From assembly GCF_001792815.1 (NCBI RefSeq), contig NZ_CP017674.1, positions 2,294,001 through 2,358,000 on the forward strand: a DNA stretch of 64,000 nt, read 5' to 3'. Positions 49,272 to 63,137 of the stretch are shown in pieces; position 1 is the first letter of the stretch; each line of letters opens with the position of its first letter. This stretch comes from Microbacterium sp. BH-3-3-3 (GTDB lineage: Bacteria; Actinomycetota; Actinomycetes; Actinomycetales; Microbacteriaceae). The notes below the pieces were generated by a model. The model was given only the letters and a program-made list of their open reading frames with translations, was not told where the DNA came from and did not search any database. The translations under genes were made by a program, and so were the position numbers.

Positions 49272-49288
49272 CGCTGGTTACCCGGAAA

Positions 49289-49305
49289 TATACGCAGAGC
49301 GTATA
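49289..49305. promoter_or_regulatory. Palindrome TATACGC/GCGTATA upstream of abiEi
   Basis: TATACGC and GCGTATA are perfect 7-base arms around AGA. The dyad lies 23 bases before the AbiEi start, in an A+T-rich segment, where AbiEi-type antitoxins are known to bind inverted repeats and repress their own operon. A second TATAG-like stretch follows just downstream. Confidence 0.55.
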
Positions 49306-49328
49306 GTTCCAGGGGTATAGGAGGGTTC

Positions 49329-49976
49329 ATGGGCGCCGACGTCGACATCGCACGGTCGATTGCTGCGTCACCGTTGCGCACAGCCCGCCTGAAAGACCTC
49401 CCTCCGCTCGTTCGGAACACGTGGCGAACCGTTGAGAGGTTGACGGACCGCGGCGCGCTGGTGCGACTGTCTCATGGTGTCTATACCGCTCCCCCCGATG
49501 GGGAAGACGGGCGTTCTTGGCGACCGTCGCTCGAGTCCACCGCCTTGGCTATCGCTGCGGCACGGGTGGGCGGCCGGTCGGCCGCCCTGATGGGAACAAG
49601 CGCGGCCCGCTACTGGGGAGTCCTTCCCCGAGCGATCGGTGTAGCAACCGTCGCGGTCGACCGGGGGAAGCACTCGGCCTTGGAACTGGATCACGGAGGA
49701 ACCGTCCTCTTCGTCCCGCGGCGTTTTGATCTGCTCGATCTCGTCTTGGAGCGCACGAGTCTTGGGCGTGGGCTCGTCACGACGCCGGCGCAGACGCTTT
49801 TCGATCTGCTTTCGCGGCGTCCCGCTGATGGCCTCGAGAAAGAGATCGATGGGGCAGTCGACAATCTGATCGCTCGGGTCGAGGTCCCCGATTACGCGGA
49901 TGTCCTCGCACGCTCTGCTCGCCCGGGCAAAGCTGCTCGCGCCGCACTCGAACGCCTGCGAGAGAAGTATGAGTGA
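49329..49976 (+). CDS. abiEi: AbiEi-family antitoxin/transcriptional regulator
   Basis: The 215-residue protein matches the AbiEi family: an N-terminal winged helix (RTARLKDLPPLVRNTWRTVE), a region LVRLSHGVYTAPPDG, and a C-terminal antitoxin domain (VTTPAQTLFDLLSRRP). AbiE systems protect against phage by abortive infection, with AbiEii as nucleotidyltransferase toxin and AbiEi as antitoxin and autoregulator. It uses more A/T-ending codons than the chromosome around it. A GGAGG lies upstream of the ATG at 49329. It overlaps the abiEii start by 8 bases. Confidence 0.82.
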   Translation: MGADVDIARSIAASPLRTARLKDLPPLVRNTWRTVERLTDRGALVRLSHGVYTAPPDGEDGRSWRPSLESTALAIAAARVGGRSAALMGTSAARYWGVLPRAIGVATVAVDRGKHSALELDHGGTVLFVPRRFDLLDLVLERTSLGRGLVTTPAQTLFDLLSRRPADGLEKEIDGAVDNLIARVEVPDYADVLARSARPGKAARAALERLREKYE

Positions 49977-50160
49977 GGCGCGCCCGACGTTCGGTGGTCG
50001 TGGACCTACGGTCGGTGTCCTCGACGAGGAAGAGCGGCGCGCGGTTCAACGGCTCTTCGGTGTCGCCGCAGAGCAGGTGGCCCGAGATCATGTCGTCTCC
50101 CATGCGCTGGCGGCCATAGCCGAGCTGAGTACGAACCATGTCGTCTTCTTCGGCGGAACG
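49969..50160 (+). pseudogene. abiEii: abiEii toxin gene, 5' part, interrupted by the transposon
   Basis: The ATG at 49969 overlaps the abiEi stop by 8 bases. The 64 codons read SEARPTFGGRG and then the beginning of the nucleotidyltransferase core, ending VVFFGGT exactly at the transposon boundary. The frame would run on into the element and end there without the rest of the toxin. The 3' part, with LSEDIDL, lies at 62504-63133. The joined gene would encode 273 residues. Confidence 0.9.
50152..50160. repeat. 9-bp target-site duplication, left copy
   Basis: GGCGGAACG lies immediately before the first base of the left terminal repeat and recurs immediately after the right terminal repeat at 62495-62503. 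Confidence 0.9.
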
Positions 50161-50200
50161 TGTGGAGTTGCTCTTTCTGTGGCGGCGTTCTGTGATCACT
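50161..50200 (+). repeat. Left terminal inverted repeat
   Basis: The 40 bases share 36 with the inverse of 62455-62494 and start TGTGGAGTTGCTC; TGTG recurs at offsets 17 and 30, which may be transposase-binding sites. Confidence 0.88.
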
Positions 50201-50230
50201 TCGTATCGCAGGGGTGGTGGTCGCTCGCGT

Positions 50231-51229
50231 CTACGCCTCGGCGTGCAGACCGATCGCGACCAGGTGTGCAGCCGCGTCGCGGACGCGCTTGGGCGCGTCG
50301 TCGGCGTGCCCGTGCTGAGCGGTGACGGCCATAGTGAGAGCGTCGCCGTGCAGGCGCGGGTGGTGCCAGATGGTCGCCGCGATCCCGTCGAGCACGTGCA
50401 CGGTGTCGGCGGCGAGGACGACGACCCGCTGCCCGTCCGTGACCGCGTTGCGCCCGGGGATCTCCGACCAGCGGTCCTCCTGTGCGGGCGGAGTTGCGAG
50501 GAGGCCGGCGGTGATCGGGACGAGCTGCTCGGCGTCGCGGTAGCGGACGCGGTACACGCCGCCGATGCCGGCGGCGAGGCGGGCGAGGATCGGGATGCCG
50601 TTCTCGAGCGCCGGCAGGGCGCTCGTCTCGGGGACCAGGAGCGGGATCGCGTCGGCCAGGTCGAGGAGTTCCAGCTGCGCCGCCCCGATCAGGTACGGGT
50701 CGCGGTCGAGGATCACGAGCGCGGCCAGCCGCGGGTGCGCGGGCGCGGGGAGGAGGCCGAGCGCGTCGGGGGAGAAGGGCCGCTTGGGCATGCCCTCCGC
50801 GGTGCGGAGGAGGAGAGGCTTCTCGTAGGGGAGGATCCGCCCGTCCGGGGTGATCCCGGTGGTCTCGTCGGTGAGGTATCCGTAGGAGCGGCCCAGGGTC
50901 GCGGCGGCCGTCGTCTTCCCGCGACCGGACGGGCCGACGAGCACGATCGCCGCGCCGGTCCGGTCCGCGAGGGCGCAGGCATGCAGCATCAGGAGAGAGC
51001 CCTGCGCGGCCTCGATCACCCGCAGCGTCACCTCCGCGATCGCCTGCGCCGCCCGATGCTCGAACGCATCCGGCGTGCTCACCATGGTGAAGGAGCTGTG
51101 GCTCGGAAGATCGGGTCTCGCGTGGCGCGTGCGCTGCCATAGGGCGGTCATGCCCTCGCGGTCCTTCGTGGATACCGCGCTGAGGTCGACGCCGATCGAT
51201 CGACCGAGAGCACGAATCGTGAGCATCAC
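50231..51229 (-). CDS. HprK-like ATPase with C-terminal PqqD-like domain
   Basis: The 332-residue protein has an N-terminal HPr kinase/phosphorylase-like nucleotide-binding core (P-loop GPSGRGKTTAAATL near residue 100) and, at about residues 255-325, a PqqD-like winged-helix domain (VTDGQRVVVLAADTVHVLDG). PqqD-like domains bind leader peptides of ribosomal peptides, and HprK-like kinases occur in some lasso-peptide clusters. No precursor peptide or maturase is visible here. It lies 70 bases inside the transposon end and 37 bases downstream of the Tat-exported protein gene, likely one transcript. Confidence 0.72.
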   Translation of the reverse strand: MMLTIRALGRSIGVDLSAVSTKDREGMTALWQRTRHARPDLPSHSSFTMVSTPDAFEHRAAQAIAEVTLRVIEAAQGSLLMLHACALADRTGAAIVLVGPSGRGKTTAAATLGRSYGYLTDETTGITPDGRILPYEKPLLLRTAEGMPKRPFSPDALGLLPAPAHPRLAALVILDRDPYLIGAAQLELLDLADAIPLLVPETSALPALENGIPILARLAAGIGGVYRVRYRDAEQLVPITAGLLATPPAQEDRWSEIPGRNAVTDGQRVVVLAADTVHVLDGIAATIWHHPRLHGDALTMAVTAQHGHADDAPKRVRDAAAHLVAIGLHAEA

Positions 51230-51266
51230 GGCCGGCGAGTTGCGGGACGTGTGCTCCGCCTGCGGA

Positions 51267-51827
51267 TCAGCGACCGTCCGGCATGAACACTGCCGCGAAG
51301 GAGGTCTGCGCGGAGGAGTCGGACGCCGTGACGGCGATCGTGGCGGAGTCGCCGCTGCGATTCATGATGCAGAGGAAGCGGAGACTCTGCCCCGCGTCCA
51401 GCGGGCTGAAGCCGTAGGTCTCGACAGCATTCGGCTTGCCAGAGCCGCTGAGATTGAACGCTTGGCTTTCCCCTCCACCGTTGTCGACGCCGACGATCAG
51501 CGAGCGCCGATCATCCCGTGTCGAGTAGACGAAACGCACCGCGCTGAACACCTGCGTCTCCTGCGAGGTGTTGGTGATGGTGAACACCGCCTGAGTGAGG
51601 CCGAACTGGGTCAACTCCGGCGTACTCCAGGTGCCGGTCAGTCTGTCGAACGGCGGCGGCGGGGTCGTGCTCGCGTGCGCGGAGGGCGCGCCGACGGCGG
51701 CGATGGCGAGAGGCACAGACCAGCCGGCGGCCTGCGCGACACGGCGGCGCGAGGGGCCGGCCTGGTCGGTGGTGGCGTCGTCGTGCTCATTCGTGGGTGC
51801 TGCGCTCCGCAGCGGTCGGTCCGGCAT
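51267..51827 (-). CDS. Tat-exported hypothetical protein
   Basis: I do not recognise a family. The 186-residue product carries a twin-arginine signal (PSRRRVAQAAGWSVPLAIAA ending with AHA) followed by a Thr/Pro-rich linker and a Ser/Thr/Asn-rich beta-sandwich-like region (FTITNTSQETQVFSAVRFVY). The start at 51827 is uncertain, because the open frame extends to 51965 and no clear ribosome-binding site is seen. It precedes the HprK-like gene by 37 bases and is probably its partner. Confidence 0.6.
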   Translation of the reverse strand: MPDRPLRSAAPTNEHDDATTDQAGPSRRRVAQAAGWSVPLAIAAVGAPSAHASTTPPPPFDRLTGTWSTPELTQFGLTQAVFTITNTSQETQVFSAVRFVYSTRDDRRSLIVGVDNGGGESQAFNLSGSGKPNAVETYGFSPLDAGQSLRFLCIMNRSGDSATIAVTASDSSAQTSFAAVFMPDGR

Positions 51828-52030
51828 CGGGATCGGAAGGAGCGGCGGCCGCGAGACGTGGGGCGGTCCGGTGTCCGTGCCGCGCAGCGTCGGCACGGTC
51901 CGGTCGACGTGCGCGGGGGACGCGACACTCGACGCGCTCAGTGTGACGCATCTCCCATCGATCACCCGAGGATCGGCGTATCCCCCGTTAAGAGCGTGCG
52001 CCTGACGGCTACCCGGGGGCCGAGCCGATT

Positions 52031-52045
52031 GTCCCGTAAGGGGAT
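52031..52045. repeat. 15-bp direct repeat, copy A
   Basis: GTCCCGTAAGGGGAT is found here and again at 58530-58544 in the same orientation, followed in both by a partly matching ACCGG. The core TCCCGTAAGGGGA is itself nearly palindromic. The two copies bracket the esterase/MFS/TetR cargo. Confidence 0.6.
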
Positions 52046-52062
52046 GGCCAACCGGTCGCGGT

Positions 52063-53022
52063 TCAGCTCCTGAGTGCGCGTCGAGCGTGGACCGCTCGGA
52101 GGGCTTGCAGTCCCTCTTCTCGCCAGGCTTGAGCGGAGGCCATGACTTTCGTGAAGGCGCTGGATCCGTGGATGTGCCCGCGTTGGAGGGAGAACGTGGC
52201 GGGTACTCCGGCGGCGGTGAGGCGTTCGGCGTAGCGTGCGCCGTCGTCGGCGATGGGGTCGTATTCCGCGGACATGATGTGCGCCGGGGGCAGGTCGTTG
52301 AGGTTCTCGGCGAGGAGTGGTGAGGCGTAAGGGTTGGTCGCGTCGGCCTCGGGCGGAAGGTACAGGCGTCGGCACAGGTGCAGGGTCTGCTCGGTGAGTC
52401 CGTAGCCGGTGGCGTTTCGGCGGATGGAGGGGCTGCTGAAGGTGAAGTCGAGCGCGGGGACTTCCAGCAGTTGGAAGGCGATCGCGGGGCCGTTGTTGTC
52501 TCGGGCTTTTAGGCAGAGGGCGGCGGCGAGGTTGGCGCCGGCGGATCCTCCGCCGACGGTGATCAGGTCGGCGCGGGCGCCGAGGTTCTCGATGTTCTCG
52601 GCGACCCAGAGCAGCGCGGCGTAGCTGTCGTTCAGGGCGGTGGGGAAGGGGTGTTCGGGGGCTTTGCGGTACTCGACGGCGACAACGATGCAGTCTGCTC
52701 CGGCGGCGCGTTCCTGGCAGAGGATGTCGATGACGATCGAGTGGATGGTGCCGCCGATCCATCCGCCGCCGTGGAAGTAGAGGTGGATGGGGTGGGGGCC
52801 GTCGCTGTCGGGGTGGAAGACGTTGAGGGTGATCTCCCCGTCCTGGACGGGGAGTCTCGCGGTGCGCTTGCTTCGGACGGGTGGGGCGGGTTCGAGCAGC
52901 TGCTCGGCGAGTGCGGCGGCGGCGGCGTTCTCCTGCGAGCGGAAGGCGGCGATGTCCTCGATCTCGGCGGGGACGGGCGGCATGGTCTCGAGCAGGGGGA
53001 CGAGGAATGGGTCGAGCGGCAT
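52063..53022 (-). CDS. Alpha/beta hydrolase, hormone-sensitive lipase (GDXG) family esterase
   Basis: This 319-residue carboxylesterase has the HGGGWIGG oxyanion motif, the nucleophile elbow GGGSAGANLA, the acid in SAEYDPIADDG and the His in GHIHGSS. Family members cut short-chain esters. No signal peptide is visible. It is the last gene of a probable operon with the SxxK esterase and MFS transporter genes, reading in the same direction with short gaps of about 30 bases. Cargo of the transposon. Confidence 0.9.
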   Translation of the reverse strand: MPLDPFLVPLLETMPPVPAEIEDIAAFRSQENAAAAALAEQLLEPAPPVRSKRTARLPVQDGEITLNVFHPDSDGPHPIHLYFHGGGWIGGTIHSIVIDILCQERAAGADCIVVAVEYRKAPEHPFPTALNDSYAALLWVAENIENLGARADLITVGGGSAGANLAAALCLKARDNNGPAIAFQLLEVPALDFTFSSPSIRRNATGYGLTEQTLHLCRRLYLPPEADATNPYASPLLAENLNDLPPAHIMSAEYDPIADDGARYAERLTAAGVPATFSLQRGHIHGSSAFTKVMASAQAWREEGLQALRAVHARRALRS

Positions 53023-53050
53023 GGGTCTTCTCCTTCGAAGAGGTGGGGTG

Positions 53051-54193
53051 TCAGAGACTGTCGCGCAGTGCGCGGCAGAGGGCTTCGGCGCGGTCGTCGG
53101 GGTAGCCGCCGGGGCGGACGGTGGCGTATCCGAGGGAGACGCCGGATTCGGGGTGCGCGAAGCCGAGCTGGCCTCCGGCTCCGTCGTGGCCGAAGCTGCC
53201 GGGGCCGGCCATGCCTCGGGGGCTGGAGTCGAGCATGAATCCTGTGCCCCAGCGGAGCCCCGAGTCGGGTCCGAAGAACGGTGCGCCGACCGATTGGGGG
53301 AGGCGGGCGTCGCGGGTGGTGGCGGGCTGGAGAAGGCGGATCCCGTCGACCTCGCCGATGGTCGCGGCGTAGAGGCGGGCGATGTCGTGGGCGGTGCCGA
53401 CGATGTTCGCGGCGGGGTTCTCGAAGCCGAGGAGGTCGGGGGTGTTCGCGGAGGCGAAGAGGTTGAGGCCGTCGATGGCTCCGTTCATCCCCATGACGCG
53501 CGCCAGCATGTCCAGGTCCGGGGTTTTCCACGGCGGTGCGGCAGTGTCGGGGAGGGGCTGCTCCTGCAGCGCGAAGTCCGGGTCGGTGTCGGGGTCGGTC
53601 CCGAAGGTGAGTCCGAGGCCGAGGGGGCCGGCGATGTGCTGGTGGAGCCAGTCCGCGGGGCGCAGTCCGGTGGTGCGGCGGAGGACTTCGCCGGCGAGCC
53701 AGCCGAAGGTGAGCGCGTGGTACGAGTGTGCGGTCCCAGGCTCCCAGAGCGGGTTCTGCCGGGCGAGGGCTTCGGTGACCGGGTGCCACGCGCGCAGGTC
53801 CTCCACGGTGAGGGGTTCGTCGGGGGCGATGAGTCCGGCGCGGTGAGCGAGGAGCTGCCGGACGGTCAGTGCGCTCTTGCCGCGGTCGGCGAACTCCGGC
53901 CAGTAGGTGGCGACGGGTTCATCGAGGGTGAGATGGCCGGCTTCGACGGCCATGAGCAGGCAGATGGTGGTGACGCCTTTGCTGACGGAGAAGAGGATGC
54001 TGCGGGTGTCGGCGGTCCAGGGTCCGTGGCGGAAGGCGCCGGCGTGGAGGTCGACGACGGGGACGCCGTGGAGGTAGACGGTGCAGGCGGCGCCGGTGTC
54101 GCCGCGTTCGGTGAAGTTCTGCGTGAACGCGTCGGCGACGCGCTGGAATCCGGGTTCGACGTGTCCGTGGATGGGGGGGGCGGGAGTGCTCAT
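53051..54193 (-). CDS. Beta-lactamase-fold serine hydrolase (family VIII esterase-like)
   Basis: The 380-residue protein has the beta-lactamase/penicillin-binding-like serine hydrolase fold; the SxxK motif is SVSKG near residue 70, and YHA takes the Tyr motif's place near residue 157. GGQLGFAHPESGV lies near the C-terminus. Class C-like esterases of family VIII hydrolyse ester and sometimes beta-lactam substrates. No signal peptide is visible, which favours an esterase. The ATG at 54193 is preceded by a poor ribosome-binding site. Confidence 0.85.
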   Translation of the reverse strand: MSTPAPPIHGHVEPGFQRVADAFTQNFTERGDTGAACTVYLHGVPVVDLHAGAFRHGPWTADTRSILFSVSKGVTTICLLMAVEAGHLTLDEPVATYWPEFADRGKSALTVRQLLAHRAGLIAPDEPLTVEDLRAWHPVTEALARQNPLWEPGTAHSYHALTFGWLAGEVLRRTTGLRPADWLHQHIAGPLGLGLTFGTDPDTDPDFALQEQPLPDTAAPPWKTPDLDMLARVMGMNGAIDGLNLFASANTPDLLGFENPAANIVGTAHDIARLYAATIGEVDGIRLLQPATTRDARLPQSVGAPFFGPDSGLRWGTGFMLDSSPRGMAGPGSFGHDGAGGQLGFAHPESGVSLGYATVRPGGYPDDRAEALCRALRDSL

Positions 54194-54225
54194 GGGTGGT
54201 GTGGAGGCCTTCTGGGTGGAGGTGG

Positions 54226-55527
54226 TCAGGACGCCGAGGATGCGGTGGCGGCGGTGATGTCGATGCTCTCGGTCTCGTGGTGGAACTCGTTGATGAGGCG
54301 TCCGCTGCGCACCCCCCACCAGCCGACGGCGATCCCGGCGGCGGCGAGGACGGAGAGGGCGATCAGGAAGCCGTTGATCGAGTTCGCGAGAAGGACCGGG
54401 ACGGGAGCCAGGAGCAGTGCGGGCACTATGCGGGCGATGGCGAAGATGACGCCTTGGCCGGTGGAGCGGAGCATGGTCGGGAACGCTTCGTTCACCCAGA
54501 CGCGGAAGATGGGCTCTCCGCAGAAGACGGTGCCCATGCCGGAGACGAGCACCGTGGTGACGAGCGTGGCCAGGTTCATCCCGAGGATGACGGGAATGAG
54601 GTACGCCGCGACGTAGAGGATTCCGCCGAGGATGAAGAAGGTGAGGCGGAAGCGGGTGTCGACCACTCGCATGAAGATGACCTGCACGATGATCGCGAGC
54701 GGCACGAGGAACAGCACGAACACGGAGAATTCGGACACGGGCGTGCCGGTGAAGTTCGCTCCGATGTAGGCCGCGTAGGAGCCGAAGAGCGTGATCGGGA
54801 TGCTCACCATCGTGAAGAAGCCGACGAGGATCAGGAACGGGAAGCGCAGCGGGGGCGTGATCAGATCCCGCAGCTTCGACCGGTCAGCGCGCACGGTGTG
54901 CACGCCCTGCGTCTGTTCCAGGCGGGCAGCGCGCCAGCTGGTGGACTCGGGGATGGTGAGCCGCAGCGCGAGCACGATGACCGCGACGACGGCGATGAGG
55001 CCGAAGATGGCCTGCGCGGCGAAGATCCCGGTCCCGCCGGTGAGGGTGGCGACGAGGACGACGGCGCCGATGCCGACTCCGGCGAGGAGGTTGGACATCA
55101 CGAGGATCTTGCCGCGGTTCTGATCTGTCGCCGCTTCGGCGATGGTCGCGAGGGAGACGGGGATATCGGCGCCGATCGCTACGCCGAGGACACCCAGCCC
55201 CAGCAGCAGCAGAGGGAACGCGGTCGCCACGATCGGGACCGATGCGCCGAGGGCGATGAAGATCATCGTGACCACGAACACCCGCCGTCGCCCGAAGCGG
55301 TCGCCGAGGCGACCGCCGATCAGAGCTCCGACCGCCACCCCGAAGGTGAGGGCGCTGGTGAGCACGCCGATCTGCCCGGGGGTGAGTCCGATCGTCTGCT
55401 GGAGGATCACCAGCGCGAAACCGACACCGTTCAGGGCTGCGCCATCGACGAAGGACGCCATGCCGGCCACGGTCCCCACCCACCAGGCGTTCACCGTGCG
55501 AGGGGGCGCCGGAATCGCTTCTGTCAT
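54226..55527 (-). CDS. MFS transporter
   Basis: The 433-residue protein has twelve predicted membrane spans. The conserved MFS loop is GGRLGDRFGRRRVFV between spans 2 and 3, and PESTSWRAARLEQTQG is in the central cytoplasmic loop typical of aromatic-acid and sugar carriers. It is first in the esterase operon and divergent from a TetR gene. It may import the substrate of the two esterases or a product; direction and substrate are unknown. Confidence 0.9.
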   Translation of the reverse strand: MTEAIPAPPRTVNAWWVGTVAGMASFVDGAALNGVGFALVILQQTIGLTPGQIGVLTSALTFGVAVGALIGGRLGDRFGRRRVFVVTMIFIALGASVPIVATAFPLLLLGLGVLGVAIGADIPVSLATIAEAATDQNRGKILVMSNLLAGVGIGAVVLVATLTGGTGIFAAQAIFGLIAVVAVIVLALRLTIPESTSWRAARLEQTQGVHTVRADRSKLRDLITPPLRFPFLILVGFFTMVSIPITLFGSYAAYIGANFTGTPVSEFSVFVLFLVPLAIIVQVIFMRVVDTRFRLTFFILGGILYVAAYLIPVILGMNLATLVTTVLVSGMGTVFCGEPIFRVWVNEAFPTMLRSTGQGVIFAIARIVPALLLAPVPVLLANSINGFLIALSVLAAAGIAVGWWGVRSGRLINEFHHETESIDITAATASSAS

Positions 55528-55605
55528 GACCTTCTCCTTCGAAGACGTCGAGGCCGGACCTCGTCGCGGGTGCCGGCGAATCCGGCTGCGGCTTACCCTA
55601 GATCA

Positions 55606-55619
55606 ATATTGTCCAGTAT
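55606..55619. promoter_or_regulatory. Imperfect dyad in the MFS/TetR divergent gap
   Basis: ATATTGTCCAGTAT is an imperfect dyad (ATA/TAT and TG/CA arms) in an A+T-rich stretch of 55600-55665, in the 184-base gap between the MFS and TetR starts. It is a plausible TetR operator, unproven. Confidence 0.4.
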
Positions 55620-55711
55620 GGCAAGCATTCGTGGTGGTAAATATTCATCTGGCAAAAGTTCGTGCGAGGATGAGATGCGGGGCGCGGTTCGCGCGGATCG
55701 AAGGAGAGCCG

Positions 55712-56323
55712 ATGACGGTGGAGGCGACGGAGCAGCCGGCGTCGGTGAAGCGGCGCGGGCGCTATGCGAACGGTCGGCAGCGACGAGACGACTTCATCGA
55801 TCGCGCGTTCGAGATCTTCGCGACGCACGGCTTCCAACGCCTGTCGTTGCGGAAGATCGCGGAGGAGCTCGGGGTCAGCCACGCCGCCCTCAGCTACCAC
55901 TTCCCCTCGAAGGAGGACCTGCTGCAGGCCGTCTTCGACCGTCAGGCGGAGCGGGATCGGCCCCTGCTGGAGCAGTCGCTCTCCGAGCAGGGCTTGCTGG
56001 CGGCACTCCCGGAGCTCGTGCGACAGAACGAGGATTTCCCGGGACTGGTTCAACTCGACGCCACCATGCAGGCGGAAGCGATTCGCAAGGACCACCCGGG
56101 GCACGAGTTCACCCATCGCCGGATCGATCTCTTCAATGCCGACGTTCGCCGGGAGCTCGAGCGCGAGCAGGAGAAGGGTCGTCTGCGCGCAGACCTGGAC
56201 CTCGACCTCACTGCGCGTCAACTCACGGCGATGGCGCGAGGGCTCCAGATGCAGTGGCTCTACGACCCCACCGTCGACGTCGCCGCGCACCTCGGCGCGT
56301 TCCTGGCGTTCCTACGAGCCTGA
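55712..56323 (+). CDS. TetR/AcrR family regulator
   Basis: The 203-residue regulator has an N-terminal helix-turn-helix reading RQRRDDFIDRAFEIFATHGF and LSLRKIAEELGVSHAALSYH. The C-terminal ligand domain shows no further match. AAGGAGAG precedes the ATG at 55712, and the open frame upstream is not conserved. It is divergent from the MFS/esterase operon, which it probably represses. Confidence 0.9.
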   Translation: MTVEATEQPASVKRRGRYANGRQRRDDFIDRAFEIFATHGFQRLSLRKIAEELGVSHAALSYHFPSKEDLLQAVFDRQAERDRPLLEQSLSEQGLLAALPELVRQNEDFPGLVQLDATMQAEAIRKDHPGHEFTHRRIDLFNADVRRELEREQEKGRLRADLDLDLTARQLTAMARGLQMQWLYDPTVDVAAHLGAFLAFLRA

Positions 56324-56358
56324 GCACACGACCGCCGCGAGGGCGGCGCGACCTGCGC

Positions 56359-56961
56359 TCAGGCCGAAGAACGGCTGCTTCGCCTGACCGCGTCGACGGC
56401 GCCTGCGAGGGCATCGTGAATGAGTGCCAGAGTCTCCTCGTTCTCGCGGTGTGATCCGAAGAGCAGCTCCACCCGCACGACGATCCCCGCCAGGATGCCC
56501 AGGGTGATCTGCACCCCCGGGTGATCCAGCGGAACGTCGAGGTCCTCCGCGATCGCGTCCGCCGCGATCGCGAGCAGGGGAGGGGAGTCCTCCGGCCCGG
56601 ACCCCTGCAGCACGGGGTTGCGCTCGAGCATCGCGGCTCTCAGCCGCCACTCCTCCTCGGGAACGAAGGCCGGTTCCTCGCGGAGCCACTGAACGACACG
56701 ATCGACGACCGACGCGCCCTCGTCTCGGGAGCGCAACGCGAGGATCAGGCGATCAGCCGCCGCGGACGAGGACGCCGTGGCGATGTGCAGCTTCGTCGGG
56801 AAGTACGCCGACACGGAGCGGGTCGACACCTCCGCCTCCTCGGCGATCTGCGCCACCGTCGTCGCGTCGTAGCCCTGCTCGGCGAACAGCCGCATACCGG
56901 CGAGGAGAACAGCACGGTACCGGCGCTCCTTCGAGCGCTCTCGAAGCGAAGTTGCAGCCAT
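56359..56961 (-). CDS. TetR/AcrR family regulator
   Basis: The 200-residue regulator has a helix-turn-helix of TTVAQIAEEAEVSTRSVSAYF. It is divergent from the membrane-anchored esterase gene, and perfect GTTGC/GCAAC dyads lie in the 73-base gap, one of them across its own start codon, suggesting autoregulation. Transcription converges on the other TetR gene. It carries a Ser-rich tail. Confidence 0.9.
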   Translation of the reverse strand: MAATSLRERSKERRYRAVLLAGMRLFAEQGYDATTVAQIAEEAEVSTRSVSAYFPTKLHIATASSSAAADRLILALRSRDEGASVVDRVVQWLREEPAFVPEEEWRLRAAMLERNPVLQGSGPEDSPPLLAIAADAIAEDLDVPLDHPGVQITLGILAGIVVRVELLFGSHRENEETLALIHDALAGAVDAVRRSSRSSA

Positions 56962-56991
56962 CCGGCAACCTTACCGCCTCTGCAGTTCTGC

Positions 56992-57012
56992 ACTGCAACG
57001 TATAGTTGCAGT
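56992..57012. promoter_or_regulatory. TetR operator candidate ACTGCAAC/GTTGCAGT
   Basis: Perfect 8-base arms ACTGCAAC and GTTGCAGT flank GTATA. Two further GTTGC...GCAAC pairs lie at 56951-56969 and 57005-57022, all between the divergent TetR and esterase genes. Confidence 0.7.
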
Positions 57013-57034
57013 AAACCGCAACTTTGGAGGACTC

Positions 57035-58462
57035 GTGATCGACCCCACTCCCACCCGCATCGAACGCCCCCGATGGACCCGCTGGGCGCTGCTCGTCGTC
57101 GGCCTCTACGTGCTCCTCGTCGCCTGGATCGAGCCGTTCTTCGTGCGCTACCCACCGGCAGGATCCTTCCTGCTCGTGGGCCTGCTCGCCGCAGTTGTGG
57201 CCTGGCGCCGCCCGCACGGCAGCAAGGCCGCGTGGGTGACGATCCTCTCGGCGATCATCAGCGCCGGCGCGCAGATCGTGTGGCTCGTGACCGCCTGGTA
57301 CCCCGCATGGGCGCTGGCCCTGGGGTTCGCGCTGGTGGTCGCCTTCTCCTGCTTCGCCGGTTTCGGGAAGCTGAGCAGAACGCGCCGCCGCGCCCTCGCG
57401 CAGGAGCGTGAGACTCCGCCGGCTCGATCCCTCCTCAGCATCCTGCAGAGCGTCGTGAGCAGCGTCCTCGTCGTCCTCGCCGCGGCGACCTCCGCTGTCG
57501 TCCTCCTGGTCGCCGCTGCCCCCGCCGCGGTGGCCATCCCGATCCAAGCCGCCGCCGGTCAGACACCGTCGTTCCAGCCCCGAGGAACCGAAGGAGCTGT
57601 CAGCGTGACCGCGAACGGAGACGGACTCACGAGCGACGTCCGATACGGCGATGAGTACCCCAGCAGCTATCTCGACGTCTACATCGCCGATGACGACGCA
57701 TCCGTCACCCGCCCCACCTACATCTACATCCACGGCGGCGGATGGATCGGCGGGACCAAATCCGACGGCGACCCGAACGCACCCGGTGGCGGGTTCGCCG
57801 TCACCACAGACCCCGTCCTCGACGGCGGATTCAACTTCGTCAGCCTCGACTACGGCCTCGCCCCGACCGTCGAGTACCCCACGCAGGTGAAGCAGATCTC
57901 GCAGGCAGTCGCCTTCCTCCAGCAGAACGCCCAGCAGTACGGCCTCGACATGTCCGACGTCGTCATCGCAGGAGGGAGCGCCGGCGGACAGCTCGCCGGC
58001 CAATTCGCCAACATCCAGACCAACCCGACCTACGCCGCTCAGATCGGAGTGCAACCGGTCATCGGCGACGCTCTGCGAGCAGTAGTGCTCGACAGTCCTG
58101 CGCTCGAGCTGGAGAAGACAGGCGAAACGCAGACCCCGCAACCGGTGAAGGACCTCATCTTCGGGCTGTCTGCGCGCAGCTACGTCGGCACCTCTACGGC
58201 CCTGAACGAGGAAGCGTCCATCACCAACCACGTCACCGCAGACTTCCCTGCCACCTTCATCGCAGACGGCAACACCGGCACGTTCCCGGATCAGGCCGAG
58301 AACCTGCACGAGCGCCTTGACCAGCTCGGAGTGACGAACGCCGTCGACGTCCCGCCTGCGAGCTCGGCGATCCTGGGCCACGGCTATATGGCGATGCCAG
58401 GCACCTGGACCGACACCTACAACGAGAAGAAGCTCGCGTTCCTGTCAGCACTCGGCCTCTGA
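57035..58462 (+). CDS. Membrane-anchored alpha/beta hydrolase
   Basis: The 475-residue protein has four membrane spans in residues 15-165 and then an esterase domain of the BD-FAE/HSL type on the outside or periplasmic-facing side. The motifs are YIHGGGWIGG and the nucleophile IAGGSAGGQLAG; DGNTGTF and the His in GHGYMAMP may complete the triad. The start is GTG at 57035 after TTTGGAGG. It appears under control of the divergent TetR. Confidence 0.85.
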   Translation: MIDPTPTRIERPRWTRWALLVVGLYVLLVAWIEPFFVRYPPAGSFLLVGLLAAVVAWRRPHGSKAAWVTILSAIISAGAQIVWLVTAWYPAWALALGFALVVAFSCFAGFGKLSRTRRRALAQERETPPARSLLSILQSVVSSVLVVLAAATSAVVLLVAAAPAAVAIPIQAAAGQTPSFQPRGTEGAVSVTANGDGLTSDVRYGDEYPSSYLDVYIADDDASVTRPTYIYIHGGGWIGGTKSDGDPNAPGGGFAVTTDPVLDGGFNFVSLDYGLAPTVEYPTQVKQISQAVAFLQQNAQQYGLDMSDVVIAGGSAGGQLAGQFANIQTNPTYAAQIGVQPVIGDALRAVVLDSPALELEKTGETQTPQPVKDLIFGLSARSYVGTSTALNEEASITNHVTADFPATFIADGNTGTFPDQAENLHERLDQLGVTNAVDVPPASSAILGHGYMAMPGTWTDTYNEKKLAFLSALGL

Positions 58463-58529
58463 CCACCCAACCTGCACCGCCGTCCGCCGTCCGTGCCGTT
58501 GCGGGAAGCGCGGTCCGATGACCAGTGGC

Positions 58530-58544
58530 GTCCCGTAAGGGGAT
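58530..58544. repeat. 15-bp direct repeat, copy B
   Basis: GTCCCGTAAGGGGAT matches copy A at 52031-52045. The 353-base space 58463-58815 holds this, the internal terminal-repeat copy, and no convincing gene. Confidence 0.6.
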
Positions 58545-58626
58545 CGTTCACCGGGACGCATTTGGAGGGCGATCCGATCGGTGTTCTCGCGGCGGTAGAT
58601 GTCGCGGTTCTACCGCGGATTTCCGC

Positions 58627-58666
58627 TGTGGAGTTGCCTGCTCCGTGGCGGCTTTCGGTGATTGCT
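58627..58666 (+). repeat. Internal degenerate copy of the transposon terminal repeat
   Basis: It begins TGTGGAGTTGC as the left terminus does and continues with a recognisable but diverged version of the rest (TGGCGGCTTTCGGTGATTGCT), in the same orientation as the left end. Its flanks do not match the target duplication, so it is not the end used in this insertion. Confidence 0.75.
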
Positions 58667-58815
58667 ACCTGTCGTCAAGTGCCGCCGATTAGTCGTACCC
58701 ATTCGCTGGAATTTGCTCAGGCGACACCGCGCTTCGGCCGCGGGTGAAGTTGCAGTGCTGGAGAGCGTCGAGGTGCCCGCCGCAGTCATCGCCGCACGGA
58801 CACCCCGACCTCTCG

Positions 58816-59340
58816 TCAGGCCCGTGCGGCTCGCCGGCGTCCGATCAGGAGTGCGGCACCGGCAGCGAGCAGGACGCCGGCGCCGAGGAGCGGTGCGGAC
58901 GCATCCGCTCCGGTCTGGGCGAGGCGCGCGCCGGGCGTCGTCGCGGCCGGGTGGGCCGTCGGGGTGGTGGCTGCAGGCATGGGTGGCACGACGAAGTAGG
59001 CGGGGTTCCCGTCGACGTAGTGGACGTAGAAGGAGTGCTCGAGGTCGGGCTCGCCCTCGGCGCGGGCGATGTACTCGGCGAAGACGAAGTAGCTGCCGGC
59101 GGGTACAGCGAGCGGGATGTCTCCTCCGTCGACGAACTCGGCGAGGTCGTACCAGCGCGAGATCGGCGGCGTGTAGTCGCTGTCGCCGTCGAGCGTCGCG
59201 GTCGCGACCACTCGGATCTCTCCGGAGACGACGCAGTCGCGGAGGGTCAGGGGCTCGAGGTGCACGACCAGGCCGTCGGGCGCGGCTTCGGTCGTCCCGA
59301 TCGGCTCGGTCGTGGTAGCGCTGGGGCTGAGCCCGATGAG
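58816..59340 (-). pseudogene. 3' remnant of an LAxTG-anchored surface protein
   Basis: The frame ends with a Pro/Thr linker, sortase motif LAQTG, a membrane span and a basic tail GRRRAARA, as in cell-wall proteins. Before it a beta-rich domain reads VRVVATATLDGDSDY-like (EIRVVATATLDGDSDYTPP). No signal peptide can be found: the frame runs upstream toward the resolvase gene with unrelated sequence, so only the C-terminal part survives. The 5' boundary near 59340 is approximate. Confidence 0.65.
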
Positions 59341-59485
59341 ATTTCTATCAGTCCACAGGTGGCGAGGACAGCGGCCGAGGGCGGCCAAGCGTCTCCATTG
59401 TGTAACGGGGTCATGCTGTGCCGGGTGAGCCTCTTTGGCAGCGACGAACGCGCGCCAGGTACCGGGTGGAGCGCTCTTCTCCACA

Positions 59486-59596
59486 TCTCGAAAAAAAGTA
59501 GCTTTTTGAGACGCACCATCCGGCGGTCGCACCACGCTCAACGGATCCGGATTCTCGGGACGTCCGCTGTCTCGGAAACACGTCTTGACGCGTTTC
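59486..59596. other. Candidate res region upstream of the resolvase
   Basis: Two dyads lie here: TCTC and A-tract against T-tract and GAGA (59486-59511), and GAAACACG/CGCGTTTC around TCTTGA (59575-59596). The region is A+T-rich and directly precedes the resolvase gene, where Tn552-like resolvases bind res subsites. Nothing else is recognised in 59341-59642. Confidence 0.4.
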
Positions 59597-59642
59597 GTCT
59601 CAGCAGGGGACGCGGAGGGTGTTCCCGAGTCAGAATGAGGTC

Positions 59643-60239
59643 GTGAGGCTTCTGGGTTATACACGTGTGAGTACGTCGAGTCAGGACGCGCAGCTGCAGC
59701 TCGACGCGCTCGTCGCCGCCGGCGTGCAGAAGCGTGACGTCTTCGCGGATGTCACCTCGGGGAGCAAGACCGCGATCGAGCGGACCGGGATGAAGAAGCT
59801 CCTCGAGTACGCCGAGGACGGCGACACCGTGGTCGTGTGGCGAGTCGACCGCCTCGGCCGCTCCCTGATCGACGTGCTGAACACGGTGAACCTGCTGCGC
59901 GAGCGTGGTGTGCAGGTCCGGTCGATTTCGGACGGCATCGATCCGTCGACGTCGACGGGACGGCTGATGTTGAACATGCTCGCCACGCTCGCGGAGTACG
60001 AGCGAGAACTCATCGTGGAACGGGTCAACGCCGGCATCGCGGCCGCCCGCGCGAACGGGACACGATTCGGTCGGCCTCTGTCGGATCCGGTCGTGATCGC
60101 GGACAAGCTCGCGATCGCCGCAGATGCGCGAGCGCGCGGTCGCACCGCTGAGGACGCTGCTCGGCTCGTCGGGTGGAGTCGCGCGACGCTCTATCGCCAC
60201 CAGCAGGCTCACGCAGCCCGTGAGAGTGCAGCGATGTAG
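59643..60239 (+). CDS. Serine resolvase (TniR/BinR-like)
   Basis: The 198-residue serine recombinase resolves cointegrates at res. Features are LLGYTRVSTSSQ with the nucleophilic Ser, DRLGRSLIDVL, STGRLMLNMLATLAEYERE, and a C-terminal helix-turn-helix (TAEDAARLVGWSRATLYRH). The start is the GTG at 59643, after GAGG; an upstream in-frame extension is unconserved. It is followed by tniA-like 6 bases later. Confidence 0.92.
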   Translation: MRLLGYTRVSTSSQDAQLQLDALVAAGVQKRDVFADVTSGSKTAIERTGMKKLLEYAEDGDTVVVWRVDRLGRSLIDVLNTVNLLRERGVQVRSISDGIDPSTSTGRLMLNMLATLAEYERELIVERVNAGIAAARANGTRFGRPLSDPVVIADKLAIAADARARGRTAEDAARLVGWSRATLYRHQQAHAARESAAM

Positions 60240-60245
60240 CGACTG

Positions 60246-61955
60246 ATGGACGGCCTCGAGCGGTGGCGGATCCTTCGACTTCACGTCGAAGATCAGGTCC
60301 CCCTCGCGGCCCTCGCCCGCGAGAGCGGCATCGGCACGCGGACGCTGCAGCGCTGGCATCAGCTCTATAAGAGGGACGGGCTCGCCGGGCTCGACGACAC
60401 TGCGAGGACGGACAAGGGCGATCGGCGCACGGATCCGGCGACCGTCGCCGCCATCGAGCGGCTCGCCCTGACCCGGCCTCGTCCGTCGATCGCGACGTTG
60501 CATCGCCTCACCGTCGAGGAGTGCCTGCGCGACGGCCGGCCGGCGCCGAGCTACGCGACGGTCCGTCAGATCGTGCAGGCCCTTGACCCCGGGCTCGTCA
60601 CCCTTGCGTTGGAGGGCCCGGCTTCCTATCGCGACCGGCACGAGTTGGTGTTCCGGCGTCGGGCGGAACGGCCGAACCAGACATGGCAGGCCGACCACAC
60701 CGAACTCGACATTCTCATCGTCGGCGCTAACGGCAAGCCCGACCGCCCCTGGCTGACGACCGTGATGGACGATCACTCCCGCGCGATCTGCGGCTACATG
60801 CTCTTCACCGGAGCACCCTCATCACTGAACACCGCTCTCGCGCTGCGGCAGGCGATCTGGCGGAAGACCGACCCCGCGTGGGCGATGTGCGGGATCCCCG
60901 ACGTGCTGCACGTCGATCACGGCTCCGACTTCACCAGCCACCACCTCGAGCGCACCGCCGTCGAGCTGCACCTCCGGCTCATCTTCTCCACCGTCGGCCG
61001 GCCTCAGGGGCGAGGCAAGATCGAGCGCTTTTTCGGCACCATCAACACCGAAGTCCTCCCGACCCTCCCCGGCCACCTCGGCCCCGGGAACCGCAGCCCG
61101 CAGCCCGTGCTCGATCTCCCGGGCGTGGACCGGGCGATCGGCGCCTTCATCGCCACCTACAATCAGCGCACCCACCAGGAGCTCGGTATCTCCCCGCGAG
61201 ATGCGTGGGTCGCGGACGGGTGGATGCCCCGCATGCCCGACACCCTCGACGAGCTCGACGGCCTGCTGCTCACCGCGCCCACGCATCGGACCGTGCAACG
61301 AGACGGAATCCACTTCCAGGGTCAGCGCTACCTCGCGCCCACCCTCGCCCCGTTCGTCGGGCACACCGTCACCATCCGCTACGACCCCCGCGACGTCTCC
61401 GAGATCCGCGTCTACGACCGAGACACATTCCTCTGCGTCGCCGTCGACGAAGCCCACCCCAACATCCGCCTCAGCCTCCGCGACATCGAAGCCGCCCGCC
61501 GCGCCCGCCGCCACGAACTCCGCCGCACCATCAACGACCGCATTCCCACCGTCGCCCACCGCGAGGAACCCCACCTCGCGGACCCCACCCCGCGCAAGAA
61601 ACGACTCCGCACCTACGAGGGGAGTGATGAGCCAGAGCTTCATCGTCACCAAGGAACACCGCCGGTTCGCCGAGTTCGCGAACGCGGTGAAGAAGGAGCG
61701 CACCATCGGCATCTGCCACGGCGACGCCGGCGTCGGCGTCGGCAAGACCAACTCCGCCCGCCGCTACGCGAACTGGGACACCCTCGAGCCCTACCTCACC
61801 GCGTGGGGCCCGCGCGGCGAGGACGACGCGAAACACAACGCGCTCGTGCATCGCTCCCGCACCGTCTTCTACACGCCCGAGGTACTGTCGCGACCCAAGG
61901 ACCTCATGCGGGAGATCGGCAAGTGGCAGGCTCACCTCGGCATCTGCATCGATGA
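60246..61955 (+). CDS. TniA-like DDE transposase
   Basis: The protein has an N-terminal helix-turn-helix (GIGTRTLQRWHQLYKRDGL), an integrase core with DDE residues in QADHTELDI, HVDHGSDF and GRGKIERFFGTINTE, and a Mu-type C-terminal beta domain. Recognisable homology ends near 61620; the open frame then runs 112 residues into the TniB gene in a different frame as an Arg/His-rich tail, because no stop occurs at the usual place. A TGA in another frame lies at 61625, so a small frameshift or a natural extension is possible. Confidence 0.88.
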   Translation: MDGLERWRILRLHVEDQVPLAALARESGIGTRTLQRWHQLYKRDGLAGLDDTARTDKGDRRTDPATVAAIERLALTRPRPSIATLHRLTVEECLRDGRPAPSYATVRQIVQALDPGLVTLALEGPASYRDRHELVFRRRAERPNQTWQADHTELDILIVGANGKPDRPWLTTVMDDHSRAICGYMLFTGAPSSLNTALALRQAIWRKTDPAWAMCGIPDVLHVDHGSDFTSHHLERTAVELHLRLIFSTVGRPQGRGKIERFFGTINTEVLPTLPGHLGPGNRSPQPVLDLPGVDRAIGAFIATYNQRTHQELGISPRDAWVADGWMPRMPDTLDELDGLLLTAPTHRTVQRDGIHFQGQRYLAPTLAPFVGHTVTIRYDPRDVSEIRVYDRDTFLCVAVDEAHPNIRLSLRDIEAARRARRHELRRTINDRIPTVAHREEPHLADPTPRKKRLRTYEGSDEPELHRHQGTPPVRRVRERGEEGAHHRHLPRRRRRRRRQDQLRPPLRELGHPRALPHRVGPARRGRRETQRARASLPHRLLHARGTVATQGPHAGDRQVAGSPRHLHR

Positions 61956-62442
61956 GCACCTCCGCACGATCGGGAAGGTCGCCGGCGTGCACAACGGCGA
62001 CACCACTCGGTGGGTCGAGATGCTCATCGTCGACGAAGCCGAGCGGCTCACGCCCACCGCGCTCGAGCTGCTCCGCGACGAACACGACCGCACCCACCTC
62101 GCGATGATCCTGATCGGCATGCCCGGCATCGACCAGCGCTTCCGCCACTACCCACAGCTCTACAGCCGCCTCGGCTTCTCTCACCGCTACCGCGCCCTCG
62201 GCCGCGACGAACTCCTCTTCGTCCTCGACCGACACTGGAAACGCCTCGGACGCACCCTCAACCCCGACGACTTCACCGACGCCCAAGCCATCGCCGCAAT
62301 CGAACGCATCACCCGCGGAAACTTCCGCCTCCTCGAGCGACTCTTCCCTCAGATCAGCCGCGTGCTCAAGATCAACGAACTCGAGACGATCACCGACGAC
62401 GTCGTCGAAGCGGCCGCCAGCGTCCTCGTCATCGGAAGCTGA
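61627..62442 (+). CDS. TniB-like AAA ATPase
   Basis: The 271-residue ATPase partner of the transposase selects targets. It begins MSQSFIVTKEHRRFAEFANA; the P-loop reads GDAGVGVGKT, two residues longer than the canonical GxxxxGKT, because GGCGTC is duplicated in tandem. Walker B is MLIVDEAERLT. Its ATG at 61627 has GGGG upstream and overlaps the TniA frame. The terminal repeat begins 13 bases after its stop. Confidence 0.88.
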   Translation: MSQSFIVTKEHRRFAEFANAVKKERTIGICHGDAGVGVGKTNSARRYANWDTLEPYLTAWGPRGEDDAKHNALVHRSRTVFYTPEVLSRPKDLMREIGKWQAHLGICIDEHLRTIGKVAGVHNGDTTRWVEMLIVDEAERLTPTALELLRDEHDRTHLAMILIGMPGIDQRFRHYPQLYSRLGFSHRYRALGRDELLFVLDRHWKRLGRTLNPDDFTDAQAIAAIERITRGNFRLLERLFPQISRVLKINELETITDDVVEAAASVLVIGS

Positions 62443-62454
62443 CCGGCGACATTT

Positions 62455-62494
62455 AGCGATCACAGAACGCCGCCATTGAACGAGCAACTCCACA
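62455..62494 (-). repeat. Right terminal inverted repeat
   Basis: Its inverse starts TGTGGAGTTGCTCG and matches the left terminus at 36 of 40 positions. Confidence 0.88.
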
Positions 62495-62503
62495 GGCGGA
62501 ACG
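62495..62503. repeat. 9-bp target-site duplication, right copy
   Basis: GGCGGAACG, identical to 50152-50160, adjoins the transposon's last base. Confidence 0.9.
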
Positions 62504-63133
62504 GCGCTCTCTCGAACGCACCTCCCGCAGACTCGGCTGTCCGAAGACATCGATCTCATCGCCCTGGGTGAGCGGCGACACGTCGCGCAACAGATCGAGG
62601 GCATTCTCTCGCGGCGACTGGGGCGCCTGTTCGGCGCCGTGCAGTTCACTCCGCGGCTCACTGAGTCGCGACATCCTCATGCTTCCGTTCTGCAGGTGGG
62701 GGAGACGCGAATCCAAGTGCAGTTGGTTTCGGCGGTCGGCTATCCTGCCTGGCCGACCGAGGTGGTGTCCATCGAGCAGCGTTACGGAGATGCTCCGCCG
62801 GCGCGCCTTCGCGTTCTCACGGCCGCGTCGTTCGTGGCGTCGAAGCTGGCAGCGTGGAGTGATCGCGGTGCCGCTCGCGATCTCTACGACCTCTGGGCCC
62901 TCGCCGAAGCGTCGAAGATCACGGGCGAGGCGCTCGACATCTTCCGACGGCTCGGCCCCCTCACCAGTGCGTCGAAGGTCAGCTTCGTGGATGTGCCAAC
63001 GCACACGGAGTGGACTCGCGCTCTGGGGCATCAGTGCCTCGTGCGGGTCACGCCGGACGTGGCCGTTGCTGTCGTCGAGGCGGCGTTGGAATCCGCCGCC
63101 GGGGGAGCCGAGGCGCCCACGCGCGAGACCTGA
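62504..63133 (+). pseudogene. abiEii: abiEii toxin gene, 3' part
   Basis: The frame continues from GGT across the removed element as ALSRTHLPQTRLSEDIDL, the nucleotidyltransferase signature, then runs 209 codons to a stop. Later conserved stretches are VLTAASFVASKLAAWSDR and ARDLYDLWAL, as in AbiEii proteins. It has no start of its own upstream of the conserved core, so it probably is not expressed as toxin. The stop lies 4 bases from the convergent TetR gene. Confidence 0.9.
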
Positions 63134-63137
63134 GCGG

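What the first reader, a model, noticed from the sequence alone, without database searches (positions are those of the whole stretch)
50152..62503. 12.3-kb transposon precisely splits an abiEii toxin gene with a 9-bp target duplication
Seen in sequence: matching terminal repeats at 50161 and 62494 are flanked by identical GGCGGAACG. Joining the halves with one copy reads FFGGT followed by ALSRTHLPQTRLSEDIDL, exactly the AbiEii nucleotidyltransferase signature, in frame to a 273-residue protein. Known: Tn552/Tn5053-type elements usually leave 5-7 bp duplications, so 9 bp is unusual. The antitoxin AbiEi is intact while the toxin is broken, so this phage-defence locus is probably off.
Basis: partly seen in the sequence, partly recalled or inferred. 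Interest (0 to 1): 0.85.

Follow-up and report, generated by a model that had tools for sequence, protein, structure and literature searches.

The report
Tn552-like transposon inside a defence toxin gene
A 12.3-kb jumping gene cut an anti-phage toxin gene in two and left a 9-base scar, which turns out to be the commonest scar among its close relatives, some of which also appear to swap cargo at, and settle beside, the sites used to resolve mobile DNA.

Summary
A 12,334-bp element (50161-62494) with matching inverted ends is flanked by GGCGGAACG and splits an abiEii gene at FFGGT|A; abiEi is open. The toxin pieces were searched apart: in 21 of 24 relatives they meet with exactly a three-codon overlap.

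The element is Tn552-like (resolvase, rve/Mu-C transposase, AAA ATPase). That 9 bp is unusual is not borne out for this clade: of 105 family copies, 42 gave inverted ends plus a duplication of 6 bp or more (null mean 0.3). Without one duplicate, the closer clade has 6:3, 7:1, 8:6, 9:18, 10:2 (n=30, window included). Copies 99.9% alike differ in length.

Beyond the finding: 13 of 41 independent insertions lie 53-173 bp upstream of a serine-recombinase gene (control 20 of 8,400), though the window's does not. Near-identical transposition modules carry different cargo, with breaks at the resolvase crossover. The window's cargo holds two direct copies of another clade's crossover core (52033, 58532) and an inner left end at 58627. 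Cargo accretion at res sites is plausible; the order of events is inferred.

The parts
49329..49976 (+). abiEi antitoxin/regulator gene, open frame of 215 aa
   Evidence: PADLOC AbiEi PDLC02242 E=6.1e-79; Pfam below cut-off
49969..50160 (+). abiEii, left piece (64 codons, ends FFGGT)
   Evidence: PADLOC AbiEii PDLC02303 profile 1-47, E=2.3e-16; sequence
50152..50160 (.). target duplication, left copy GGCGGAACG
50161..50212 (.). outer left terminal inverted repeat of the transposon
   Evidence: I2, 83% over 52 nt; profile score 59.7 (the window's own ends were in the profile's training set)
50231..51229 (-). cargo: HprK-related kinase-like protein (weak, below cut-off)
   Evidence: TIGR04352 1.1e-6, 28 bits against a cut-off of 200; no Pfam hit
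51267..51965 (-). cargo: protein of unknown family
   Evidence: no Pfam hit
52033..52044 (+). first copy of CCCGTAAGGGGA, crossover-like core of the res site of the L175-type clade
52063..53022 (-). block cargo: alpha/beta-hydrolase esterase (Abhydrolase_3)
   Evidence: Pfam 2.4e-66
53051..54319 (-). block cargo: serine hydrolase of the Pfam Beta-lactamase fold family, LipL/LipE-like esterase by best hits; no resistance-gene model reached its cut-off
   Evidence: Pfam PF00144 2.7e-61; all 25 listed NCBIfam hits below cut-off
54226..55527 (-). block cargo: MFS transporter
   Evidence: Pfam 2.1e-32
55694..56323 (+). block cargo: TetR-type regulator (start uncertain)
   Evidence: Pfam TetR_N 2.3e-16
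56359..56961 (-). block cargo: TetR-type regulator
   Evidence: Pfam TetR_N 1.6e-13
57035..58462 (+). block cargo: esterase (BD-FAE/Abhydrolase_3) with a long N-terminal extension
   Evidence: Pfam 7.7e-25 at residues 213-426 of 475
58532..58543 (+). second, directly repeated copy of CCCGTAAGGGGA
58627..58674 (.). inner left end, same orientation as the outer left end
   Evidence: D6 75% over 48 nt, I3 80% over 49 nt; profile score 48.1 (in the training set)
58816..59664 (-). open frame in the inner unit, unknown family; overlaps site I and tnpR start
   Evidence: no Pfam hit
59485..59512 (.). res site I of the element (28-mer, central dinucleotide GT)
   Evidence: 21 of 25 scored consensus positions (whose label said 24; corrected)
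59649..60239 (+). tnpR, serine resolvase (start uncertain)
   Evidence: Pfam Resolvase 1e-43
60246..61955 (+). tnpA transposase (rve plus Mu-transpos_C); close relatives end near residue 460, this frame runs to 569
   Evidence: Pfam
61627..62442 (+). tnpB, AAA ATPase; P-loop carries two extra residues seen in none of 103 other copies read
   Evidence: Pfam AAA_22 8e-16
62443..62494 (.). right terminal inverted repeat
62495..62503 (.). target duplication, right copy GGCGGAACG
62495..63133 (+). abiEii, right piece (carries SEDIDL)
   Evidence: PADLOC AbiEii 5.9e-81, profile 45-247; Pfam AbiEii 2.1e-23

Best explanation
A Tn552-like transposon moved into the abiEii toxin gene of a Microbacterium-type chromosome. 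TnpA (a DDE transposase) with TnpB (an ATPase that would choose or license the target) joined the two ends to target strands 9 bases apart; repair made the 9-bp duplication. Shown: both ends, the duplication, the split gene, the TnpR-TnpA-TnpB set, and that duplications of 6-10 bp with a mode of 9 are normal for this clade. Inferred: the roles of TnpA and TnpB (from their families), that the toxin is inactive and that the defence pair is off. The element itself looks assembled on its left side. Shown: an inner left end at 58627, two direct copies of a foreign res core flanking the esterase/MFS block, and, in relatives, cargo differences that begin at the resolvase crossover. Inferred: that these cargo blocks came in by resolvase-mediated exchange and by one element landing in another's res site, after which the outermost left end and the right end moved as a unit.
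For: Ends and duplication. Pieces of AbiEii meet with a 9-nt overlap in 21 of 24 relatives. Family copies: 42 of 105 have ends plus a duplication of 6 or more; null mean 0.3, maximum 1, in 20 rounds. Copies of one element give different lengths: 7,874-bp element, two copies 99.94% alike, 6 and 10; 10,050-bp element, six copies (five of them compared with L108, at least 99.9% alike), 6,6,6,6,7,7. The only duplication in the window fits the outer left end, not the inner one. Four of 31 close-clade elements with a duplication have an inner left end and none an inner right end; 2 profile hits in 480 kb outside. Cargo breaks at site I: 8 pairs sharing the right arm break at 0,0,-2,-2,0,-2,-8,-2 from the crossover and share the dinucleotide; 68 of 96 testable copies carry a site I scoring 17 or more of 25, control 3 of 2,053 stretches. 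L071: left 1.19 kb 99.7% identical to L116 and L175 although the tnp modules are about 70-72% identical, ending at CCCGTAAGGGGA. That 12-mer occurs 3 times in the 3.5-Mb genome: twice in this cargo, once in a tRNA-Ser gene.
Against: No relative with this same abiE locus and no element was found, so the exact pre-insertion allele is not seen; the two relatives with the outer flanks lack abiE there. 63 of 105 family copies gave no ends-plus-duplication pair, for some because flanks were cut; but several with clear ends have no duplication (for example L043, L062, L075, L078, L081, L089, L100), and L035 has two left ends neither of which pairs. The window's outer left end resembles its own right end (36 of 40), not the L175-type left end, so the donor of the foreign core is not identified. 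No L175-type resolvase was found in this genome: the best match is 37% identical and is the element's own TnpR. The cargo block was not found bounded by single cores elsewhere.
Confidence: 0.85

Rival explanations
1. The two ends belong to different elements, and the 9-bp match is chance or the relic of a deletion between two insertions; the real mobile unit is the 3.9-kb inner element 58627-62494.
For: An inner left end exists at 58627, and the inner stretch holds all three tnp genes.
Against: The inner end has no matching flank with the right end; the outer end matches over 9 bases at the exact element border, and the AbiEii frame agrees on both sides. In L041, L038 and L071 it is again the outer end that pairs.
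Confidence: 0.03
2. The cargo was simply transposed or recombined in by unrelated routes, and the two CCCGTAAGGGGA copies and the inner left end are leftovers without any role of resolvases.
For: No cognate L175-type resolvase found in this genome. The cargo was not found in any locus fetched nor as a block in 55 other genomes (only short matches in a capped list).
Against: Two exact direct copies where 100 shuffles gave none; the same core at the break of L071 and about 139 bp before tnpR in L115 and L175, with one-base variants in L114 and L116; independent site-I breaks in the near clade.
Confidence: 0.35
3. AbiE was not functional before the hit, so the insertion is neutral debris.
For: The pair is absent at this place in G006 and G007, so it is patchy and dispensable.
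Against: Both pieces are open and the frame agrees with relatives.
Confidence: 0.25

Closest known systems
Tn552 of staphylococci
   Same: Gene order cargo - resolvase - rve/Mu-C transposase - AAA ATPase - right end; TnpA 42.5% identical over 87% to an S. epidermidis copy; TGT...ACA ends; that copy (L192) has ends alike at 34 of 40, a 6-bp duplication, and its right end 66 bp before a recombinase gene.
   Different: The duplication of L192 is 6 bp; Tn552-II is reported with a 7-bp target site (att), described by its authors with a circular intermediate and not as a simple duplication (PMC12486829, passages). The window's clade has a mode of 9. Cargo and host differ.
Tn5053/Tn402 (res site hunters)
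   Same: Mu-C-type transposase, separate resolvase, insertion near res sites.
   Different: 5-bp duplications (PMC7765201, passages); the transposases in enterobacterial plasmids that I take for TniA (one of the 60 rows listed is so named) are only about 26% identical. No TniQ-like gene was noticed here (not searched with a profile).
Tn3-family module exchange at res
   Same: Modules exchanged at or near the res I dinucleotide (PMC7157771, passages; Kholodii 2001, seen only as a reference in PMC12217951).
   Different: Here in an rve/Mu-C (Tn552-like) clade, and with two res types in one element.

Membership tests
Tn552 family | resolvase + rve/Mu-C transposase + AAA ATPase in one block at the right end | tested here: met
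   same order in L192
Tn552 family | transposase closer to Tn552 than to Tn5053/Tn402 | tested here: met
   37.6-43.8% in six staphylococcal rows against about 26% (one row 28.4%) in the enterobacterial rows of a 60-row sample; no tree built; family names of the hits partly recalled
Tn552 family | target duplication of 6-7 bp (6 measured in L192; 7 partly recalled) | tested here: not met
   9 bp here; clade mode 9, so I call it Tn552-like, not Tn552
Tn5053/Tn402 family | 5-bp duplication | tested here: not met
   9 bp here; lengths down to 5 were allowed and none of its 42 pairs had 5
Tn5053/Tn402 family | insertion in res sites | tested here: not met
   no recombinase gene beside this insertion; 13 of 42 in the family are
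AbiEii toxin | nucleotidyltransferase family match on both sides of the junction | tested here: met
   pieces apart: profile 1-47 and 45-247 of PDLC02303; 21 of 24 relatives
AbiE system | phage protection or toxicity | not testable with these tools
   needs culture work
IS481 | NCBIfam equivalog cut-off | tested here: not met
   123.9 bits against 224

The most novel reading that the evidence does not exclude
These transposons use res site I as an attachment site, rather like an integron: resolvases of the same or another clade splice blocks in and out at the crossover core, so a 6.5-kb esterase/MFS block bounded by two direct copies of CCCGTAAGGGGA is a res-borne cassette, and repeated landing in each other's res sites stacks left ends.
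Probability: 0.35. Interest if true: 0.65.

Novelty: new variant of a known kind. Interest (0 to 1): 0.42.

Why it matters
A transposase clade whose target stagger varies from 6 to 10 bases, even between copies of one element that are 99.9% alike, is a natural test of how rve/Mu-C transposases set the distance between strand-transfer sites. If cargo is exchanged at res sites, it also explains how closely related transposition modules in actinobacteria come to carry quite different cargo. The broken abiEii is, by itself, an ordinary case of a defence gene lost to a mobile element.

Tried and rejected
Tried without result: finding this cargo in other elements (no blastn match at 1e-10 beginning left of 59460 in the loci fetched by then; 37 plasmid records match, the best covers 24% of the element); finding the stretch around the second core and up to the inner left end elsewhere (query 58463-58626: one search gave one weak hit, E=0.04, over the core itself in a Micrococcus plasmid beyond the tnpA of a family element; one search gave weak partial hits in eight other genomes of 366 searched, own included); extra copies of the element's own site I in cargo (11 hits of 17 or more of 25 in 1.38 Mb, none inside the window's element). 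Finding an empty abiE allele at this locus: none; G006/G007 lack abiE, and none of the 24 loci with AbiEii relatives carries the window's neighbour genes within the stretch held, while 23 of 24 carry abiEi.

Rejected: a 3.9-kb inner unit as the thing that inserted (no matching flanks); a res-site target for this insertion; a link of short duplications with res targets as a general rule: all three 6-bp cases of the close clade are at recombinase genes (3 of 8 against 0 of 22, hand-computed one-sided chance about 0.014, seen after the fact), but the distant clade shows 6 bp away from them too. The third genomic copy of the core is not a relic: it lies in a tRNA-Ser gene (ARAGORN). L049's 11-bp duplication was not used because its left end does not begin TGT. 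A pairing of L038 across two elements was dropped as an artefact.

Limits: the 72% border between clades was drawn after seeing the data; transposase matches under 55% identity were dropped before the count of 105; ends were sought only for TGT...ACA borders and within the flank held; recombinase gene starts are approximate, and L091 and L057 fall outside the 250-bp limit. The site-I threshold of 14 is lax (97 of 2,053 control stretches reach it), but 68 of the 70 sites reach 17, which 3 of 2,053 controls do. The paper statements rest on passages, not whole papers. My paper searches for a 9-bp rule or for this clade listed none that I recognised; that is no proof that it is not in print.
Full report
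What was checked. The ends of the element, the flanking GGCGGAACG and the split frame were read from the sequence and found again by a mechanical repeat search and by an end profile built from family copies, the window's own three ends included. The element is 12,334 bp, 50161-62494. With the ends fixed by their inverted repeats, the flanks agree over 9 bases, not 10. Nine bases at a fixed place agree by chance about once in 262,000 (4 to the ninth; simple reckoning).

The toxin gene. The left piece (49969-50160) and right piece (62495-63130) were never joined. PADLOC's AbiEii model PDLC02303 takes the left piece at positions 1-47 and the right piece at 45-247, so the three codons G-G-T are present twice. 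Against the 24 loci with relatives among 366 genomes of the same genus, own included, the two pieces meet with exactly three codons of overlap in 21; L121 projects to 10 nt because the left alignment stops at residue 53; L139 and L144 are incomplete; L123 counts among the 21 with a weak left alignment. AbiEi is open. That the pair no longer works is inference. In two relatives with the same neighbours (G006, G007), the transglutaminase and TetR genes stand side by side and no abiE match was found in the 20 kb fetched: abiE is an insertion relative to them, or was lost there.

What the element is. It has a serine resolvase, an rve/Mu-C transposase and an AAA ATPase next to its right end, with cargo to the left. 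In a 60-row sample of 4,762 plasmid records, the transposase is 93% identical to a Microbacterium copy, 57% to one in Kozakia, about 38-44% to staphylococcal copies and about 26% to most enterobacterial Tn402/Tn5053/Tn7-like ones (family names partly recalled). An S. epidermidis copy beside blaZ-blaR1-blaI, which is Tn552 by content (my recognition), has ends matching at 34 of 40, a 6-bp duplication, and sits 66 bp before a recombinase gene. It holds one copy of the element.

Duplication length. I took 105 distinct transposase copies of at least 55% identity from 111 matches in the fetched loci (sources, and the window). Requiring ends alike at 20 of 40 and an exact duplication of at least 6, 42 of 105 qualify; with right flanks taken from other copies the count was 0 or 1 in 20 rounds, mean 0.3. 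The search allowed 5 bp and found none. L076 and L165 are the same insertion with one base lost (100% flanks), so 41 are independent; I dropped L165. Close clade (72% or more; n=30 with the window): 6:3, 7:1, 8:6, 9:18, 10:2. Distant clade (n=11): 6:5, 7:3, 8:3. Copies of one element at different sites differ: 7,874 bp, 99.94% alike, 6 and 10; 10,050 bp, at least 99.9% alike to L108, 6,6,6,6,7,7; 10,089 bp, 99.75% alike, 8 and 6. Hence 9 bp is typical here, and the stagger is flexible. Published comparison: 5 bp for Tn5053 (PMC7765201, passages); a 7-bp target site for Tn552-II, in the authors' wording an att with a different copy at the other end (PMC12486829, passages).

Target. Thirteen of the 42 (13 of 41 independent) lie 53-173 bp upstream of the approximate start of a serine-recombinase gene, where res sites lie, against 20 of 8,400 random outside positions in the same loci. 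So the clade behaves in part like the res-site hunters of the Tn5053 family. The insertion in the window does not: no recombinase gene was found near it.

Mosaic cargo. A 28-bp site with an inverted repeat lies 110-200 bp before the resolvase's conserved motif in 70 copies at 14 or more of 25 scored positions (mislabelled 24 there); of 96 testable copies 68 reach 17, against 3 of 2,053 control stretches. In the window it is at 59485-59512 with GT in the centre (21 of 25). Among 2,415 pairs, 8 share the right arm (95% or more) and differ on the left (under 50%); the breaks lie at 0, 0, -2, -2, 0, -2, -8 and -2 from the central dinucleotide, which both partners share. Four further pairs share the left and differ on the right, with breaks 8 to 17 bases to the right, as a conserved half-site would give; 20 pairs share both arms. 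The pairs are not independent of one another (L034, L160, L070 and others recur). Exchange by resolvase at res is known in Tn3-family elements (PMC7157771, passages).

In L071 the left 1.19 kb is 99.7% identical to L116 and L175, whose transposition genes are only 70-72% identical, and the identity ends at CCCGTAAGGGGA; about 60 bases on, an inner left end begins. The same core stands about 139 bp before tnpR in L115 and L175, and with one base changed in L114 and L116. The window has it twice, in the same direction, at 52033 and 58532, around a 6.5-kb block of two esterases, a serine hydrolase, an MFS transporter and two TetR genes; the inner left end follows 83 bases after the second core. 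100 shuffles of the window gave no exact match; the whole genome has one more, in a tRNA-Ser gene. The motif was noticed through L071 and a weak match at the second window site, so that site is not independent; the first one (52033) is. L114 too carries an exact core and a one-base variant 603 bp apart. No L175-type resolvase was found in this genome.

Nested ends. Four of the 31 close-clade elements with a duplication (window, L041, L038, L071) have an inner left end in the same direction and none an inner right end; in all four the outer end makes the duplication. L035 also has two left ends, but neither pairs with its right end. L037 shows what may be a step on the way: an element whose right end lies 81 bp before the resolvase gene of a second set of tnp genes. 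My model: one element lands in another's res site; afterwards the outer left end and the inserted element's right end travel together, and the old left end stays inside. The order of events in the window is inferred.

State of the copy. The tnpA frame runs to 569 residues, whereas close relatives end near 460, and tnpB carries two extra residues in the P-loop that none of 103 other copies shows (in one more no P-loop was read). Whether the copy can still move, or whether these are assembly errors, cannot be told here.

Numbers mended: site I is scored over 25 positions; the stretch from the second core to the inner left end is 83 bases; the Tn552-II report speaks of a target site rather than a duplication; two calls (83, 84) were added.

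Noticed in passing
window 60246-61955 and about 61720-61750: tnpA frame extended to 569 residues against about 460 in close relatives, and a two-residue insertion in the tnpB P-loop not seen in 103 other copies read: decay or assembly error.
   Followed up: partly
window 49274-63135: The whole abiE stretch is absent in G006 and G007, where the transglutaminase and TetR genes are adjacent.
   Followed up: partly
L038 17264-19197: A 1,934-bp unit with family-type ends, a 9-bp duplication, cadmium-resistance-type genes and a recombinase but no annotated tnpA or tnpB, 11 bp from another element's right end: may have been moved in trans.
   Followed up: no
L047 and L051 (Agreia pratensis): A right end and a left end only 37 bp apart between two family elements, perhaps a junction of neighbouring copies.
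   Followed up: no
close-clade insertions L044, L050, L037: All three 6-bp duplications of the close clade are at recombinase genes; seen after the fact.
   Followed up: partly
window 52746-52801 and 57703-57758: 56-nt inverted repeat, 86%, inside the two esterase genes of the block: a shared coding stretch that could allow inversion of the DNA between.
   Followed up: no
L103, L105-L109 (Curtobacterium, Frondihabitans, Amnibacterium and an unnamed Microbacteriaceae): A 10,050-bp element at six different sites in several genera, copies at least 99.9% alike to L108, with 6- or 7-bp duplications: seemingly recent spread.
   Followed up: partly
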